64,000 bases of DNA from Pseudanabaenaceae cyanobacterium SKYG29. Its GTDB lineage: Bacteria > Cyanobacteriota > Cyanobacteriia > Pseudanabaenales > Pseudanabaenaceae. Numbering within the stretch: position 1 is the first letter of the stretch; each line of letters begins with the position of its first letter. The notes beneath the pieces were generated by a model. The model was not told where the DNA came from and searched no databases. It saw nothing but the letters and a program-made list of their open reading frames with translations. The translations under genes and the position numbers were made by a program. Location of the stretch: assembly GCA_025055675.1 (NCBI GenBank), contig JANWWT010000007.1, positions 62,001 to 126,000 of the forward strand, written 5' to 3'. Below, piece by piece: positions 38,017 through 46,506 of the stretch.

Positions 38017-38484
38017 ATGTCCAAACCTAAGGGTAGCACGAGAAGGACTCCCCACTCGCCCCTGGGTCTAGTCTTGGCGTTCGCCTTTTCTACAGGGCTA
38101 GGGATCGGGCTAGCACAATGGCAACCCCAGTGGTTTCCCCTCCTATGGGGCAATCACACCCCTCCGTCCGGTAAGCGCTTTGTCTTAGCCAGTAACCGCC
38201 TCTTTTTCCCTGTCGAAGCTACCCTCAGGCAGGAAGCCCTTCCCCTCCTCGACCAAATTGCCCAAAGCTTTCCTCCTAATCCCCGCAGCCATGTGCGTGT
38301 GGTGAGCTACTCCCGATCGGTGGATACACCCCAGGAAAGCCTTAATCTGTCCTACCGCCGCGCCCTAGCAGTAGAAAGTTATCTGCGGAGTAAAACAAAT
38401 AACGATCGGTATTATTGGTTTGCCAGTGCTGTTGCCAGTTCAGAGCCAGAAGAAGAGCGCCTTGAAATTATCATTAGCCCCTAG
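38017..38484 (+). CDS. Membrane-anchored OmpA-like domain protein
   Basis: 155 residues from ATG 38017 (MSKPKGSTRRTPHS). A basic N-terminus and one hydrophobic helix (LGLVLAFAFSTGLGIGLAQ) suggest an inner-membrane anchor or uncleaved signal. The rest resembles an OmpA/MotB peptidoglycan-binding fold: RQEALPLLDQIAQSFPP, VRVVSYSRSVDTPQESLNLSYRRALAVESYL. The usual Asn-rich NxxLSxxRA loop is kept as LNLSYRRALAV. The stop overlaps the convergent rseP stop by 4 bp. Confidence 0.75.
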   Translation: MSKPKGSTRRTPHSPLGLVLAFAFSTGLGIGLAQWQPQWFPLLWGNHTPPSGKRFVLASNRLFFPVEATLRQEALPLLDQIAQSFPPNPRSHVRVVSYSRSVDTPQESLNLSYRRALAVESYLRSKTNNDRYYWFASAVASSEPEEERLEIIISP

Positions 38485-39548
38485 AAAATCTGTTCCAGAT
38501 AGTCCTGCAGCAGGTTATAGGAATCGCGAAAAATCATAAACATCCCCAGACTGAGGAGCACTACTAACCCTCCCTGCATAACATTTTCCTGGATTTCTTT
38601 GGGCAGAGGATTGCCACCCCGCAGGGCTTCCAGGAGGAGAAATAACAACTGCCCCCCATCCAAAGCGGGTAAAGGCAAAAGGTTGATTATTGCCAAGTTG
38701 ATGCTGATAATAGCCGCAAAGTTTAATAACTCCGTCCAGCTGGATTGGGCAATGCGGGAGCCCGTCGCCACGATCGCTACTGGACCTGCCAACTGTTTGG
38801 CAGTCTCACTAAAGTTAGTCAGCAAACCCTGTAAGCCCTGGAGGGTGATCTGACAGAGATTAGCAAAACTAACTGCTGCTGCCTGCATAACAGCTAGAGG
38901 ATTGGTAAAGGGTTGGCGAATTGTCCTGCCCGCATAGTCCAGGAGAATGCCAATACGGGGAGGGCTGCCCTGGGGCGAAACAGACAAAAAGAGCCTTTCC
39001 CCCTGACGAGATATGGTAAGAAGCATCGATTGGTCTTTGTGGCGCGCCACCTCCTTTTGAAATTCAGCAATAATGTTTTCCCCATTGCCCAGGTCACGAT
39101 CGTCCACTGCTAGGATAATATCCCCTGGCTTGATCCCTGCTACCGCCGCTGGGGAATTGGCATAGCTATAGTTGAGCACCCGTAAGCCTGGTTGGTCGAG
39201 GACCTGGGTACCTGTCTGCCACGCCACAATTACTAGCAGCAAATAGGCAAAGATAAAGTTAGCCGTCACTCCCGCCAACATCACGATCGCCCTTTGCCCC
39301 AGGGGACGATGAGCTAGTAAATCCTGGGTCTCCTCCTCGCTGTCATCGGGGAAACTGACAAAGCCCCCCAAGGGAATCGCCCGCACACAGTAGGTCACCT
39401 CTTTGCCTTGCCATTGCCATAAAACAGGACCAAAGCCCAGGGAAAAACTATGCACCCTGATCCCCTGCCAGCGGGCTGCCAGGAAGTGACCTAGTTCATG
39501 GACAAACACTAAAACGGCGAGGACAAGTATGGCAATGACTGTAAACAT
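38481..39548 (-). CDS. rseP: Site-2 metalloprotease (RseP/RIP, M50)
   Basis: 355 residues, starting in a first membrane helix. Zinc site HELGHFLAARW at residues ~18-28, a central PDZ domain (YANSPAAVAGIKPGDIILAVDD), and the second catalytic motif LLPLPALDGGQLLFLLLE. All catalytic residues are present, unlike the homologue at 33946. It performs regulated intramembrane proteolysis, for example of anti-sigma factors. Confidence 0.94.
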   Translation of the reverse strand: MFTVIAILVLAVLVFVHELGHFLAARWQGIRVHSFSLGFGPVLWQWQGKEVTYCVRAIPLGGFVSFPDDSEEETQDLLAHRPLGQRAIVMLAGVTANFIFAYLLLVIVAWQTGTQVLDQPGLRVLNYSYANSPAAVAGIKPGDIILAVDDRDLGNGENIIAEFQKEVARHKDQSMLLTISRQGERLFLSVSPQGSPPRIGILLDYAGRTIRQPFTNPLAVMQAAAVSFANLCQITLQGLQGLLTNFSETAKQLAGPVAIVATGSRIAQSSWTELLNFAAIISINLAIINLLPLPALDGGQLLFLLLEALRGGNPLPKEIQENVMQGGLVVLLSLGMFMIFRDSYNLLQDYLEQIF

Positions 39549-39593
39549 AACCCTGGCTGGCTGATCTGAATCTGTATAGATTTCTATACTACA

Positions 39594-40955
39594 TCATGGG
39601 ATGGATAGGGGAATAGCAATAGTAAACTCTGTGCCTTCTCCCTCTACAGAAGTGCAGGTAATTTGACCCTGATGTTGCTCTTCCACAATTTTGCGACTAA
39701 TCGACAGACCTAACCCCGTCCCCTTCCCCACAGGCTTAGTGGTAAAAGTAGGCTCAAAAATTCTCTGTTTGATTCCCTCAGGTATACCAGGTCCATTGTC
39801 TTGAATCTGAATAACTACTTTGTCACTCTCCACTTTGGTGCGGATGTGGATTTGCGGTGTACGGTCGCGACCAGTCTGAAAATACTCATCAAAAGCATCA
39901 ACAGCATTTGCCAATATATTAATAAACACCTGATTCAATTGCCCCAAGTAGCATTTTACTGGCGGTAAATCTCCGTACTCTTTTACAACCTGAATCTCTG
40001 GTCTTTGGTTTTTGGCTTTGAAACGATGCCCTAATACCAGCAGGGTACTATCAATTCCATCATGGATGTTGGCAGGGATGGCTGTAGTGCTATCCGATCG
40101 GGAAAAGGTGCGCAGGGAGCGAGAAATATTGGTGAGCATATTCGCTCCCACTTGAAAGGAATCCATGATTTTGTGTAGATCGGTGATGATAAATTCTAAA
40201 TCGAGAAATTCTAAGACCTCTGCCACTTCCATTACAGGGTCAGGATAGTAGGTCATAAACAGACGAATTAAACGGGTTAACTCCGCCACATACTCCTTGG
40301 CTGGCTCCAAATTGGTGGCAATAAAGTTGACAGGGTTGTTGATTTCATGGGCTACTCCCGCCACTAGTTGACCCAGGGTTGCCATCTTCTCTTGCTGAAT
40401 CAGTTGCAATTGGGTTTGTTCCAAATTGTGGAGTGCGTCTTTCAACTCCTTCGTGCGCTTTTCTACCAGTTTCTCTAGGTTGTCCGCTAGTTCTTTTAGC
40501 TCTGCTTCTGCCTTCATACGCGCTGTCACTTCTGCCTTTAGTTGCAGGTTTTGTTGCGCTAAACTTTTGTTTAGACGGCTAATTTGTAAATGAGTCCGCA
40601 CTCTGGCAATAACTTCATCCTGCTGGAAGGGCTTAGTGATGTAGTCTACTGCTCCCAAAGACAAACCCCGCACCTTATCCACTGTCTCTGACAGTGCTGT
40701 CATGAAAATAATAGGTATTTCTGCTGTCTTAGGGTTAGCTTTTAAGCGTTCGCAGGTCTCAAACCCATTCCAACCAGGCATCATCACATCAAGAAGGATT
40801 AGGTCTGGCGGATCATAGGTGGCTCTTTCTAAGGCAATTTGACCATTTTGTGCTACTCTTACCTCAAACCCCGCTTCGTCTAATACATCTGATAAAACAT
40901 TGAGGTTGGTGGGATTGTCATCGACAATTAAAATCACTGTTCTCTCTTCGTTCAT
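39594..40955 (-). CDS. Response-regulator/histidine-kinase hybrid (REC-HisKA-HATPase)
   Basis: 453 residues. The N-terminal receiver has its Asp in [16 protein letters not shown] and Lys in [12 protein letters not shown] coiled coil (~120-200) links it to HisKA with [14 protein letters not shown]. HATPase shows [24 protein letters not shown] and [13 protein letters not shown]. This is a soluble kinase controlled by its own receiver, common in cyanobacteria. The start overlaps the stop of the REC-GGDEF-EAL gene by 4 bp, so they are surely co-translated and probably act in one relay. Confidence 0.93.
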
Positions 40956-43105
40956 ATCTTTCCCCTAATTACCCGATCGGTTTGCCAGTGCTGTAACAGT
41001 TCTGTTACTACTTCGGCAGGACTTGGTTTATGGAACAGATAACCCTGCCCATAGTCACAGCTCAAAGACTGCAATATGGCTAGCTGCTCTGCCGTTTCTA
41101 TCCCTTCTGCTACTACATCCATGTTTAATCCCCTCGCTAACGTAATAATGGTTCTTACCAGGGCTAACCCGCCATTATCAGAAATCATGCGATTGAGAAA
41201 AGAGCGATCGATTTTCAGAGTATCTGTCGGTAACTCATGCAGACGACTCAAAGAGGAGTAGCCTGTGCCGAAGTCATCAATACAGAGTTTTGTCCCCGCC
41301 TGTCTCAAGTTGATCAAAGCATTCACCTCTGTATCCAGCACACCCAATAGCGAACTCTCCGTGATTTCCAATTTGATCGCTCGCCTGGGCAGATTGTAAT
41401 ACTTGTGTAACTCACTGATCGATTCGCATAAACCTGCTTGATTCAATTGTAGAGGGGAGATATTGATGTTTACAACTAAATTCCGTTCTGGAAACCTATC
41501 GTACCAAATTCTAGTCTGGGCAAAGGCATTTTCCATGACCCATTGTCCAATCTGTTTGATCGAACCTGTCTCTTCCGCAACGGGGATAAATTTAGCTGGT
41601 GAAATCCACTGCCCATTACTGTGCTGCCAGCGCACGAGGGACTCAAACCCTGTAATCTCTCCAGTAGAGAGGGAGACGATCGGTTGGAAAAATAGGCGTA
41701 ACTCCTTGCGTTCGATAGCTTTTTGTAGGTCCTGCTCTAACTGCAAACGTGACATTGCTAGGGCTTGCATAGAGGGATCAAAGACTTCATAACGCCCTCT
41801 GCCATTAGCTTTGGCTTGATACATAGCAATATCGGCATCTCGCAGCACATCTGCCGGCTCCTGGTAATTGTTGGTGCTAAAAGTAATGCCAATGCTTAAC
41901 CCTGTGCAAACTTCGTAGGCTCGCAAACGAAAGGGCTTTCTAAATTCTGCTTGTAACTGCTCCGCTAGGGTCTCCGCTTGGTTAAAGGTCTCTAAATCCC
42001 GCAGTAAGATAATGAATTCATCACCCCCAAATCGACCCACAACCCCCCCCTGTGGCTCTACTACTGCTTTCAGTCTTTGGGCGGCTTCTCTGAGTAGTTC
42101 ATCCCCTACTAAATGACCAAGACTATCGTTGATGACTTTGAACCGATCGAGGTCCGCAAATAAAACAGCATACTTGTAGTCATCTACTTTTTGCGTTTTG
42201 ATAATTGCTTCGGTGAGGGCATCCATGAACTGCAACCGATTGGGAAGTTTGGTCAGACTGTCGTGGTAGGCATCATAGCGTAGTTGTTCCTTAGCAAGTT
42301 TGAGGGCTTGGTTAGCTGCTTCCAGTTCTAGCATAGCTTTTTGTTTACTGGCAACAGCAGCACTCAGTTTGATCATTTGTTTTTGTAAGATCGCCTGATT
42401 CTGTTTTAGCTCTTCATTGCGCTGTTGTAGCTCGGCTGTTCTTTGGGCTACTTCCAACTCTAGGGCATCTTTCAGCTTTAACAGTTCTTCTTGGGCGATC
42501 TTGCGTTCTTGGACTTCTGCTCTTAACTTTTGGGCTATCTTTTCAAAGACTTTGAACCAACTGGTTTCCTGGAAATTATGCTGCTCAAACAGCTGAATTT
42601 CTAGTTCCATCAAGTGGTGTTCTGCTTCTGCTAGCTGTCGCTCTTGTTGTTCTACTAGATGGCGTAGTCGTTCTTCTGCTTGACGACGTGCCTGGTTTTC
42701 TGCCTGTAGTTGTTTGGTCATCGACCGCAAGGATAAATGGAGCTTGACCCTGGCAATCACTTCCTCTAGGCGAAAGGGTTTGGTTATGTAATCCACTGCC
42801 CCAGCATTGAATCCTTTAACTTTGTCTTCTGTCTCTGCTAGAGCAGTCATGAAAATAACGGGAATGTCTTTTGTCTGGGGAGAAGCTTTTAGGCGCTCAC
42901 AGGTGCTAAACCCATCTAGCCCTGGCATCATCACATCCAATATGATTAAATCGGGCAATTCCAGGCTAGCTTTGCGTAGGGCATTTTCCCCGTCCAAGGC
43001 TACTCTGACATCAAACCCAGCTTCGTCCAGGCATTCCGAGAGTACCTCTAGGTTCTTGGGGTTGTCATCAACAATAAGAATCACCCCATTAACTGGGTCG
43101 GACAT
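40952..43105 (-). CDS. REC-GGDEF-EAL c-di-GMP signalling protein
   Basis: 717 residues. Receiver at ~8-125 (Asp in LIILDVMMPGLDGFST), long coiled coil to ~275, GGDEF at ~285-440 and EAL at ~450-705. The cyclase site is intact, GRFGGDEFIILL. No RxxD product-inhibition site is visible in front of it. The phosphodiesterase motifs are kept: FESLVRW (ExLxR), INISPLQL, EITES, DDFGTGYSSL, KIDRSFL and EGIETAEQ. The enzyme may therefore make and degrade c-di-GMP, switched by phosphorylation of the receiver. It follows the cryptochrome gene by 15 bp. Confidence 0.95.
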   Translation of the reverse strand: MSDPVNGVILIVDDNPKNLEVLSECLDEAGFDVRVALDGENALRKASLELPDLIILDVMMPGLDGFSTCERLKASPQTKDIPVIFMTALAETEDKVKGFNAGAVDYITKPFRLEEVIARVKLHLSLRSMTKQLQAENQARRQAEERLRHLVEQQERQLAEAEHHLMELEIQLFEQHNFQETSWFKVFEKIAQKLRAEVQERKIAQEELLKLKDALELEVAQRTAELQQRNEELKQNQAILQKQMIKLSAAVASKQKAMLELEAANQALKLAKEQLRYDAYHDSLTKLPNRLQFMDALTEAIIKTQKVDDYKYAVLFADLDRFKVINDSLGHLVGDELLREAAQRLKAVVEPQGGVVGRFGGDEFIILLRDLETFNQAETLAEQLQAEFRKPFRLRAYEVCTGLSIGITFSTNNYQEPADVLRDADIAMYQAKANGRGRYEVFDPSMQALAMSRLQLEQDLQKAIERKELRLFFQPIVSLSTGEITGFESLVRWQHSNGQWISPAKFIPVAEETGSIKQIGQWVMENAFAQTRIWYDRFPERNLVVNINISPLQLNQAGLCESISELHKYYNLPRRAIKLEITESSLLGVLDTEVNALINLRQAGTKLCIDDFGTGYSSLSRLHELPTDTLKIDRSFLNRMISDNGGLALVRTIITLARGLNMDVVAEGIETAEQLAILQSLSCDYGQGYLFHKPSPAEVVTELLQHWQTDRVIRGKI

Positions 43106-43120
43106 AGGTTTAGGGCAGGG

Positions 43121-44614
43121 TCACGATCGCCTACGCTTTTTGATCTTATCTTGCTTCCCTTTGGCTTTCAACGCCTGATTATAGATTTTCTCCTGCTCCC
43201 CCACGGAGCGATCGAGGTCGACGATGGGTTTAGGGTAATCCCTACCGGGGGTGAAGTGGTAGAGTTTTTGTTCGGTAGGGTTCAACTGCCAGGGGGTATG
43301 CACAAGGTGGGGGGGGAGGGAACGCAAAACGGGCAGCCAATGTTTGACGTATTCCCCCTGGGGGTCGTAGTCCTGGGCTTGTTTGCGGATGTTAAAGTAG
43401 CGGAATCCTCGGGCGTCATTGCCTACCCCTGCAGTGTAGTTCCAGTTGCCCCAGTTGCTGCATACGTCGTAATCGATCAATTGGGACTCAAACCACTCGG
43501 CTCCCCAGCGCCAATCAATCCCCAAATTCTTGGTCAAAAAACTAGCAACGTTCTGCCTGCCCCGATTGGACATAAACCCTGTTAGTAGCAGTTCCTGCAT
43601 ATTAGCATCTACTAGGGGAAAGCCCGTTTTGCCTAGCCGCCATTGCTCGAATAAGTCCCGATCGGTACGCCAAGGCAGGTCAATTCCCCGCAATCCCTCG
43701 CGGTGGAATACCCGATCGCCGTGTTTCAGGACAATAAACCGAAAATAGTCCCGCCACAGCAGTTCAAACACCAACCAGTAGGTGGAGTCGTTTTTAATGC
43801 GATCGGTTTCGTATTGTTTTACTTGGGCATAGACGTAGCGGGGACTGAGACAGCCCAGGGCTAGCCAGGGGGAGAATTTGGAGGAGTAGTTTGCCCCCAG
43901 CATACCATTGCGGGTTTCTTTGTATGTCCTAAGACAGTCCTGCTGCCAAATGTAATCCCGCAATCTGGCTAAACCTTGGGTTTCACCTCCCCGAAATTGT
44001 AGAACAGCCCGATCGTCCACCACAGGCACAGGTAATCCCAGTTCCTCTAGGGTAGGCAAAGGTTCACTGGGGGGGAGGTCAGGAGTGGGGATATGGCTGG
44101 GGGTGGGGAGGGGCGGGGGCGGCGTGAGGGATTTTTCCACAATTTGGCGGAAATTGGTAAAAACTTCAGGTAAATCGGCAATAGCAAAGGGCAAATCCTG
44201 GAGGGGATAGAGGGTATGTCCCCAAAAGCCCACTAGCTTTACCCCCAGGGGAGCTAACCTGTCTGCTAATTTTCTCTCTACCCTGGTTTCTTCGGAGGCG
44301 ACTTCCTGATGGTAGTAGACTGCCGTTGCTTGGCACTTTTGGACCAATTCAGGTAAAATCTCCTCTGGCTTGCCCCGATAGACCAATAAATCACTACCCC
44401 GCTCCCGCAACTGCTTGCGCAAGTCTACAACACTCTCTAGGAGAAACTGCGCCCGCCAGGCTCCCGTCTTGGGGAACTGCAACAGGTCAGTAGTCCCAAA
44501 TTGCCGTGGGTCAAAGCAATAGACAGGAATTACCTGGGCTGGCAGGGCGGCAACAAGTGGTTGATGGTCGTGTAGACGTAGGTCGTTGCGCAACCAAAGA
44601 ATAATGGGGGACAT
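43121..44614 (-). CDS. Cryptochrome DASH / photolyase-family flavoprotein
   Basis: 497 residues. An N-terminal photolyase alpha/beta domain (ILWLRNDLRLHDHQPL) is followed by a C-terminal FAD-binding helical domain. DASH-type features are NWGNWNYTAGVGNDAR and YFNIRKQAQDYDPQGEY, together with the GRQNVASF segment. The tail is strongly basic (KGKQDKIKKRRRS). CRY-DASH proteins bind FAD and usually MTHF, repair CPD in single-stranded DNA and may signal blue light. The ATG begins right after the flavodiiron stop codon, so the two are translationally linked. Confidence 0.92.
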   Translation of the reverse strand: MSPIILWLRNDLRLHDHQPLVAALPAQVIPVYCFDPRQFGTTDLLQFPKTGAWRAQFLLESVVDLRKQLRERGSDLLVYRGKPEEILPELVQKCQATAVYYHQEVASEETRVERKLADRLAPLGVKLVGFWGHTLYPLQDLPFAIADLPEVFTNFRQIVEKSLTPPPPLPTPSHIPTPDLPPSEPLPTLEELGLPVPVVDDRAVLQFRGGETQGLARLRDYIWQQDCLRTYKETRNGMLGANYSSKFSPWLALGCLSPRYVYAQVKQYETDRIKNDSTYWLVFELLWRDYFRFIVLKHGDRVFHREGLRGIDLPWRTDRDLFEQWRLGKTGFPLVDANMQELLLTGFMSNRGRQNVASFLTKNLGIDWRWGAEWFESQLIDYDVCSNWGNWNYTAGVGNDARGFRYFNIRKQAQDYDPQGEYVKHWLPVLRSLPPHLVHTPWQLNPTEQKLYHFTPGRDYPKPIVDLDRSVGEQEKIYNQALKAKGKQDKIKKRRRS

Positions 44615-46327
44615 CTAGTAGTGATTGCCGACTTTACGGTGGTGGGCAGCGGTGAGAGCGTCTGGCTTGGATACTTTACCATCTTCCGCTACAGCATAGA
44701 CAACCCAGTGGTCATGGGCATCCATACGGCTGACTACTTGACATTCTACATAGGCGAGGGCTTCCGTGAGGATGGGGATACCCTTAGCCGAGGGTTGAGT
44801 TTTAACTCCTGCAAACCGATCGGCACCGGGGGCAAATCGTTTGAGGAAGTGGCGGAGGAGATGGCTATAGTTGCCTTCTTCTAAAATGTTGAGGACAAAG
44901 TGATCTCCCACCTGCATCAGGGCTTCAATGGCGCGGTCCTTAGCCACGGCAACGGTAATCCCCAGGGGTTTGAAACTGGCTTGGGAAACCCAGGAAGCCA
45001 CCATAGCACTGGTCATTTCCCCCTTCTTGGCAGTAACAATGTAGAGTCCGCCGGCAATCCGACCCATTGCCCTGTCTAAATCGCTGTCGAGGGCTTTAAT
45101 TTGTTGAATGTTCTGTTTGCGGGTTAGGAGTTGTCCTAGGTCAGTGCCTGCCTCTTCACACATTTGGTAGGTAGTCTGGCTGGGAGTAGCTTTGATGCGC
45201 AGGAGGGGGAAGCCCAGTACAATCCCCAGGTCTTTGCACCGATTGGCGACTAAATCGATCGCTTCCTCATCCCCGCCAAAGGACTCATAAATACCCACCG
45301 CTTGCTTGGGCTGCAGAGAACCGAGGATGGTTGCTACAGCTGTCTGTACAGAGGGCAGAGACTGGGGCGGCGTGGTGAACACAACCCCGCTGGCATGTTC
45401 CACCAGTTCCCGAATTTCCTGCAGGTCAGTAGTGCGCAAGTCCCGCATTTCCAGGGCTACCCCTGTTTTCCCTACCCCCCGCGCAATCGCCTGGGATAAG
45501 CGATCGCTGTAACCATAGTCGGACACATAGAAAATTACCACGTTAGTATCATGTTTAGTCTGGGCTTGGCTCCAGGTGCGGTAATTCTCCGTCAGTTCCT
45601 TGAGGTTGTACTTCAGCAGCGGTCCATGCCCATTGGCTACAATCTGCACAGGGGGCAACTCATCCATCCGTTTCATGGCAGAAAGTACCGATCGGGCATT
45701 GGGAGCCATCAGACATTCGTAGTAAAAACGGTAGTCAGGCAGAATAGCCGGTAGGTTTTCGTCAAATACCGAACTATCGCAGTAATGCATGCCAAAAATA
45801 TCGCAGGTAAAAAGGACTCCCGTCTTGTGGTCATAGGTCATCATTGTATCGGGCCAATGGAGGTTGGGAGCATTGACAAACTGCAATAGATGTCCCTTGC
45901 CTAAGTCCAGCTGATCGCCATTTTTGACTGCCTGTTGCTTAAAGTCTATGTGCACTAAATCCTGCAGGAATTGCAATGCTACCTTTGTCCCCACTACAGT
46001 CACCTGGGGCGCTAGCTGCAAGACATCCTTGACTAAGCCACTGTGGTCTGGCTCTGTATGACTGATAATCAAATAATCTAGGCGGGAGAGGTCAACTTGT
46101 CTTTGTAACTCTTCCAGGTAAAGAGAACGAAACTTAGCGTGGGAGGTATCCACCAGAGCAATCTTGTCCCCCCAAATTAAGTAGGAATTGTAGGTAGTGC
46201 CGTTTTGCAAGCCAAATTCAATATCAAATCTGTCTCTGTCCCAATCTAACGACCGTATAGTTACCGTCTCTTCTGCGATCGTCAGGGTCTGCAGGGACAA
46301 TCGAGGGGCAGCAAGAGTGGTAGTCAT
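44615..46327 (-). CDS. flv3: Class-C flavodiiron protein (Flv3-like)
   Basis: 570 residues in three domains: beta-lactamase-like diiron domain (~1-265), flavodoxin (~270-420) and NAD(P)H:flavin reductase (~430-570). Diiron ligands are all present: HTEPDHS, the His in NLHWPDT, the Asp in CDIFGMHYCD and the His in NGHGPLL. Flv1 and Flv2 lack several of these, so this is an Flv3- or Flv4-type subunit; the N-terminal wording (RSLDWDRDRFDIEFGLQNG) fits Flv3. It reduces O2 to water on the acceptor side of photosystem I. AAGGAG lies 7 nt before the ATG. It heads a run with CRY-DASH and two signalling genes. Confidence 0.92.
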   Translation of the reverse strand: MTTTLAAPRLSLQTLTIAEETVTIRSLDWDRDRFDIEFGLQNGTTYNSYLIWGDKIALVDTSHAKFRSLYLEELQRQVDLSRLDYLIISHTEPDHSGLVKDVLQLAPQVTVVGTKVALQFLQDLVHIDFKQQAVKNGDQLDLGKGHLLQFVNAPNLHWPDTMMTYDHKTGVLFTCDIFGMHYCDSSVFDENLPAILPDYRFYYECLMAPNARSVLSAMKRMDELPPVQIVANGHGPLLKYNLKELTENYRTWSQAQTKHDTNVVIFYVSDYGYSDRLSQAIARGVGKTGVALEMRDLRTTDLQEIRELVEHASGVVFTTPPQSLPSVQTAVATILGSLQPKQAVGIYESFGGDEEAIDLVANRCKDLGIVLGFPLLRIKATPSQTTYQMCEEAGTDLGQLLTRKQNIQQIKALDSDLDRAMGRIAGGLYIVTAKKGEMTSAMVASWVSQASFKPLGITVAVAKDRAIEALMQVGDHFVLNILEEGNYSHLLRHFLKRFAPGADRFAGVKTQPSAKGIPILTEALAYVECQVVSRMDAHDHWVVYAVAEDGKVSKPDALTAAHHRKVGNHY

Positions 46328-46506
46328 GGCTTATCTCCTTGGGGTTGTACTAGGTATAAACTACTGGCATCTTAGCACTGTGTCATCCTGTCTAGGGGCG
46401 GACTTGAGCAGAAATGTGATTTATTTTACTAATAGTAGACTGCAAGGACAGGCTATAGACTCTTGGGATTTTGCTAATATAGACCTGCCTTAGATGTGGT
46501 TCCCCT

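What the first reader, a model, noticed from the sequence alone, without database searches (positions are those of the whole stretch)
39594..46327. Apparent operon joining flavodiiron protein, CRY-DASH, c-di-GMP enzyme and a REC-kinase
Four minus-strand genes follow with 0, 15 and -4 bp junctions: Flv3-like O2 reductase, CRY-DASH, REC-GGDEF-EAL, REC-HisKA. Cotranslation of an O2-photoreduction enzyme with a blue-light flavoprotein and a c-di-GMP switch suggests a light/redox-to-lifestyle circuit. I know of no standard operon of this composition. A strong SD precedes the first gene and a 179-bp promoter region lies before it.
Basis: partly seen in the sequence, partly recalled or inferred. Interest (0 to 1): 0.66.

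Follow-up and report, generated by a model that had tools for sequence, protein, structure and literature searches.

The report
Genus-specific light-protection and c-di-GMP operon
In one small genus of Pseudanabaena-type cyanobacteria, genes for an oxygen-scavenging photoprotection enzyme, a blue-light flavoprotein and a two-gene c-di-GMP signalling module are packed into what looks like a single operon; it is conserved in that genus but was not found elsewhere, and a light-to-lifestyle circuit is possible but unproven.

Summary
Four minus-strand genes (flv3, cry-DASH, REC-GGDEF-EAL, REC-histidine kinase) abut at 0, 15 and -4 bp, with a strong SD and 179 bp before divergent pheT. A fifth same-strand gene, an rseP-type protease, follows after 45 bp. 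Catalytic motifs tested are intact. The block is kept in both other genomes of the genus; in the more distant one both flanks differ, and about half of nearby gene adjacencies are broken. A 15-bp promoter-like element before flv3 is shared by all three species and not found before flv3 elsewhere in the family. Outside the genus the flv3-cry neighbourhood was not found: 0 of 79 other CRY-DASH loci, and 0 of 30 phylum-wide genomes holding both genes. The two signalling genes are a recurrent cyanobacterial module; in the best comparable loci they follow a hybrid sensor kinase, and here flv3-cry occupies that place. Most likely this is a genus-level operon that co-expresses photoprotection with a c-di-GMP two-component pair lacking its own sensor. 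Signalling from CRY-DASH into c-di-GMP is an attractive but untested hypothesis. In the distant genome the cry frame is broken, perhaps by assembly error.

The parts
46328..46506 (-). intergenic region between flv3 and divergent pheT; presumed promoter region
46351..46365 (-). 15-bp element AGTAGTTTATACCTA, 24-38 bases before the flv3 ATG; 14-15 of 15 matches in all three species of the genus; presumed core promoter
   Evidence: no match above chance before 26 other flv3 genes of the family (their start codons were set approximately)
46335..46340 (-). Shine-Dalgarno AAGGAG of flv3
44615..46327 (-). flv3, class C flavodiiron protein with canonical diiron ligands (HTEPDH, LHWP, CD, GHG)
   Evidence: 68-73% identical to flv3 of the family
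43121..44614 (-). CRY-DASH flavoprotein
   Evidence: TIGR02765 613.6 bits; PDB matches 6kii and 1np7
40952..43105 (-). REC-GGDEF-EAL c-di-GMP enzyme, catalytic motifs intact, no RxxD inhibitory site detected
39594..40955 (-). REC-HisKA-HATPase kinase without a recognised sensor domain
39574..39589 (.). perfect palindrome GTATAGAAATCTATAC just after the kinase stop codon; single copy in this genome and in G002
38481..39548 (-). rseP-type M50 protease, possible fifth gene of the transcript (45 bp gap)
   Evidence: kept behind the kinase in G001 and G002

Best explanation
A genus-level operon (flv3-cry-dgc-hk, possibly with rseP) transcribed from one promoter upstream of flv3. Shown: gene order, tight junctions, intact motifs, conservation in all three held genomes of the genus, and a conserved upstream element. 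Inferred: one light- or redox-responsive transcript makes Flv3 (O2 photoreduction, probably with Flv1 encoded elsewhere) and CRY-DASH, the latter coupled to Flv3 by stop-start reinitiation. The same transcript would set the level of a two-component c-di-GMP pair in which the REC-kinase phosphorylates the REC domain of the GGDEF-EAL enzyme. The link between the photoprotective half and the c-di-GMP half is co-expression; a direct signal from CRY-DASH is not required.
For: Junctions 0/15/-4 are identical in G002 and 1/about 21/-4 in G001. In G001 the block is bounded by hisG instead of pheT and by a different gene after rseP. Over about 40 kb compared with G001, 11 of 15 same-strand and 4 of 14 opposite-strand adjacencies survive, and flv3..rseP is the longest surviving run. 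A 15-bp element before flv3 is shared by the three species only. Motifs are intact in dgc and hk of all three. REC-HK and REC-GGDEF-EAL are also neighbours in G056 and G040. A cotranscribed kinase and REC-GGDEF regulator, CdgK-CdgS, has been shown in Anabaena (PMC9927289).
Against: There is no transcript data. The promoter and terminator scan is at background. In G001 the cry reading frame is broken in two places and split between contigs; an assembly fault is likely but decay is possible. Same-strand retention is high in the region anyway (11 of 15), so block survival alone is modest evidence.
Confidence: 0.64

Rival explanations
1. Sensor replacement: blue or UV-A light sensed by CRY-DASH (perhaps with Flv3-dependent redox state) modulates the sensorless REC-kinase, which phosphorylates the GGDEF-EAL enzyme and shifts c-di-GMP, changing motility, phototaxis or aggregation.
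For: Elsewhere the same pair, or its GGDEF-EAL enzyme alone, stands behind a hybrid sensor kinase (G056, G040, G016), where flv3-cry stands here. Neither dgc nor hk has a sensor domain. CRY-DASH Sll1629 is reported to inhibit negative phototaxis in Synechocystis (PMC3546692).
Against: No physical or genetic evidence. CRY-DASH proteins are also photolyase-like repair enzymes. The REC domains could receive phosphate from any kinase in the cell. Whether the hybrid kinase survives elsewhere in this genome could not be searched.
Confidence: 0.13
2. Chance join of two unrelated units: a stress bicistron flv3-cry and a separate signalling bicistron dgc-hk that came to lie 15 bp apart in the ancestor of the genus and have not been separated since, without a shared function.
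For: The dgc-hk pairing exists without flv3-cry elsewhere. The arrangement is restricted to one genus. cry is frameshifted in G001.
Against: The 15-bp cry/dgc gap leaves no room for a promoter outside cry. The block was kept while the flanks on both sides changed in G001.
Confidence: 0.2
3. Assembly or annotation artefact.
For: The genomes are draft assemblies; at least G002 is a metagenome-assembled genome.
Against: Same order on an independent 606,900-base contig (CALGKB010000004.1) and in a third genome; all frames intact in G000 and G002.
Confidence: 0.02

Closest known systems
Cyanobacterial flv3-flv1 operons (class C flavodiiron proteins)
   Same: Flv3 with canonical ligands at the head of a transcription unit; a second, non-canonical Flv1-type copy exists in the genome
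   Different: flv1 is 72 kb away beside a chorismate synthase gene; the downstream partners are cry-DASH and a c-di-GMP pair. PMC4390876 notes that flv1/flv3 organisation is not conserved
CdgK-CdgS two-component system of Anabaena PCC 7120
   Same: histidine kinase and REC-containing c-di-GMP enzyme encoded together; phosphorylation of the REC domain controls c-di-GMP output (shown in PMC9927289)
   Different: CdgK is a 12-domain membrane-anchored hybrid kinase upstream of the cyclase; here the kinase has no sensor, lies downstream, and the enzyme carries both GGDEF and EAL
Hybrid kinase / REC-GGDEF-EAL / REC-HK clusters (loci in G056 and G040)
   Same: same enzyme and kinase architectures, adjacent
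   Different: no hybrid sensor kinase here; flv3-cry occupies its place
CRY-DASH of Synechocystis (Sll1629, structure 1np7)
   Same: same family (E 3e-190 to 1np7)
   Different: no flv3 neighbour in any of 79 CRY-DASH loci outside the genus; the Synechocystis locus itself was not examined

Membership tests
Class C cyanobacterial flavodiiron protein, Flv3 type | ODP + flavodoxin + flavin-reductase domains with canonical diiron ligands | tested here: met
Class C cyanobacterial flavodiiron protein, Flv3 type | closest to Flv3 rather than Flv4 | tested here: met
   69% to the flv1-linked copy and 56% to the next copy in G004, which has two such pairs; G000 has only two copies; no tree built
CRY-DASH | above the TIGR02765 cut-off | tested here: met
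   613.6 against 317.05 bits
CRY-DASH | photoreceptor or single-strand DNA photolyase activity | not testable with these tools
   needs biochemistry
REC-GGDEF-EAL c-di-GMP enzyme | GGDEF, ExLxR, DDFGTG and the other catalytic motifs | tested here: met
   all three genomes
Two-component pair | the kinase phosphorylates the adjacent REC domain | not testable with these tools
   phospho-acceptor His and Asp motifs present
Operon | single transcript | not testable with these tools
   indirect support only: junctions and conserved order
Light-controlled c-di-GMP enzyme | photosensory domain within the GGDEF/EAL protein or its kinase | tested here: not met
   no photosensory domain in dgc or hk; coupling in trans through CRY-DASH is untested

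The most novel reading that the evidence does not exclude
In this genus CRY-DASH has taken the place of the hybrid sensor kinase and, with Flv3, feeds light or O2/redox information in trans into a sensorless REC-kinase / REC-GGDEF-EAL pair: a cryptochrome-controlled c-di-GMP switch encoded together with its own photoprotection enzyme.
Probability: 0.12. Interest if true: 0.8.

Novelty: new variant of a known kind. Interest (0 to 1): 0.42.

Why it matters
The in vivo role of cyanobacterial CRY-DASH is poorly settled, and no partner of it in second-messenger signalling is known to me. A conserved operon that ties it to an O2-photoreducing enzyme and to a c-di-GMP pair without its own sensor gives a concrete, testable candidate link between photoprotection and the motile/sessile decision. 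If it is only co-expression, it still shows how photoprotection and lifestyle genes were combined in a small-genome lineage.

Tried and rejected
Sigma-70 and terminator scans were uninformative. The 15-bp upstream element was considered as an NtcA box and rejected: GTA-N5-TAC, not N8 (own knowledge of the NtcA consensus). The palindrome 39574-39589 was considered as a regulon operator; it is single copy in G000 and G002, so no regulon is visible. Flanks of flv3 and cry in a neighbouring genus (G003, G010) held no dgc or hk. G055 has a flavodiiron gene near cry-DASH, but it is Flv1-type and convergent, so not the same arrangement. Literature searches found no paper describing a flavodiiron/cryptochrome operon or a cryptochrome/diguanylate-cyclase operon (open-access library only). 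No structure was predicted, because domain identities were already certain.

Full report
OBSERVATION. The four genes, their coordinates and their junctions are exactly as described. Domain searches confirm a three-domain flavodiiron protein, a CRY-DASH well above the family cut-off, a REC-GGDEF-EAL protein and a REC-HisKA-HATPase kinase. The flavodiiron protein has the canonical diiron ligands (HTEPDH, LHWP, CD, GHG) and is 68-73% identical to flv3 of its family. The genome's only other copy lacks the ligands, is Flv1-type and lies 72 kb away beside a chorismate synthase gene. The GGDEF and EAL motifs, the receiver aspartates, the kinase histidine and the ATP-binding boxes are intact in all three species. 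An rseP-type protease follows on the same strand after 45 bp and belongs to the same conserved block.

CONSERVATION WITHIN THE GENUS. Two other genomes of the genus are held. G002 (a Pseudanabaenaceae metagenome-assembled genome, CALGKB010000004.1) has the same order with identical 0/15/-4 junctions. G001 has flv3 1 bp from cry, cry about 21 bp from dgc, and the same 4-bp overlap of dgc and hk, followed by rseP. Its contigs C136 and C89 meet inside cry, with only about 24 query bases unmatched between them, at a C-rich stretch, so their continuity is inferred. Upstream of flv3, G001 has divergent hisG instead of pheT. Downstream of rseP it has an alcohol dehydrogenase-like gene (by reading the ORF). 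Its pheT lies on another contig with 2.1 kb of unrelated upstream sequence. Across about 40 kb of window compared with G001, 11 of 15 same-strand adjacencies and 4 of 14 opposite-strand ones survive, and the flv3..rseP run of five genes is the longest. Contig ends in G001 may inflate the broken count. Caveat: the cry frame in G001 is interrupted in two places. The genome is a fragmented draft (390 contigs, 5% contamination), so an assembly fault is likely, but decay cannot be excluded.

UPSTREAM ELEMENT. The three flv3 upstream regions share a 15-bp element AGTA[GA]TTT[AG]TACCTA whose last base lies 24 to 36 bases before the ATG. It is present even in G001, where the neighbouring gene differs. 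Best matches before 26 other flv3 genes of the family are at chance level, with the caveat that their start codons were set approximately. I read it as the core promoter; no TSS data exist.

OUTSIDE THE GENUS. In 58 relatives from 24 families, flv3 and cry-DASH are never neighbours outside the genus; the nearest pair I saw is 18 kb apart in G013. In a phylum-wide sample, 30 other genomes hold both genes and none has them adjacent; the nearest is about 33 kb, in G192. Of 80 CRY-DASH loci with flanks of up to 6 kb (shorter where contigs end), only the G002 locus has flv3. The GGDEF-EAL enzyme has no match below E 1e-170 outside the genus.

THE SIGNALLING HALF IS A KNOWN KIND OF MODULE. REC-GGDEF-EAL and REC-HK occur together elsewhere. 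G056 has hybrid kinase - REC-GGDEF-EAL - REC-HK. G040 has hybrid kinase - REC-HK (4-bp overlap) - REC-GGDEF-EAL. G036 has hybrid kinase - REC-HK. In nine loci of the most populous genus of the family, the REC-GGDEF-EAL gene has a second REC domain encoded just upstream; in G016, the one read in full, this is the end of a 1594-aa hybrid sensor kinase. The pattern is not universal: in G003 the upstream gene is unrelated, and in G051 it is not resolved. So the distinctive point of the window is not the c-di-GMP pair. It is that the pair has no neighbouring sensor kinase and stands behind flv3-cry instead. The precedent for a cotranscribed kinase and REC-GGDEF enzyme in cyanobacteria is CdgK-CdgS of Anabaena (PMC9927289).

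INTERPRETATION. The best-supported reading is one operon giving co-expression of photoprotection and a c-di-GMP two-component pair. A direct signal from CRY-DASH to the kinase would make sense of the missing sensor and of reports that CRY-DASH Sll1629 affects phototaxis (PMC3546692), but nothing here tests it. Flv1/flv3 gene organisation varies among cyanobacteria (PMC4390876), so an unusual partner of flv3 is not in itself remarkable. No paper in the open-access library describes this combination.

VERDICT. Real, conserved in one genus, new as an arrangement, ordinary in its parts; a circuit is possible but unproven.

Noticed in passing
window 39574-39589: Perfect palindrome GTATAGAAATCTATAC between hk and rseP, conserved in G002 and single copy in both genomes; function unknown (possible rseP operator or weak hairpin).
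   Followed up: partly
L098 6034-7761 (G000:C7:34045-35757): Flv1-type flavodiiron gene without canonical ligands, next to chorismate synthase, far from flv3; no Flv2/Flv4 pair in this genome.
   Followed up: partly
L216 4033-9279 (G055): In an unrelated family a CRY-DASH gene follows a photolyase/cryptochrome-like gene of another type on the same strand, with a convergent Flv1-type gene about 0.5 kb away.
   Followed up: no
L097 64-495 and L096 2-975 (G001): cry-DASH reading frame broken in two places in this draft genome; assembly fault or decay.
   Followed up: partly
window 43121-43165: CRY-DASH ends in a lysine/arginine-rich tail (KAKGKQDKIKKRRRS), similar in G002 and G001.
   Followed up: no
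L096 4598-4775 and L097 upstream of flv3 (G001): C/G-rich repeat-like sequence (CCCTCTCCC...GGGAGAGGG type) in both intergenic regions that flank the block in G001.
   Followed up: no
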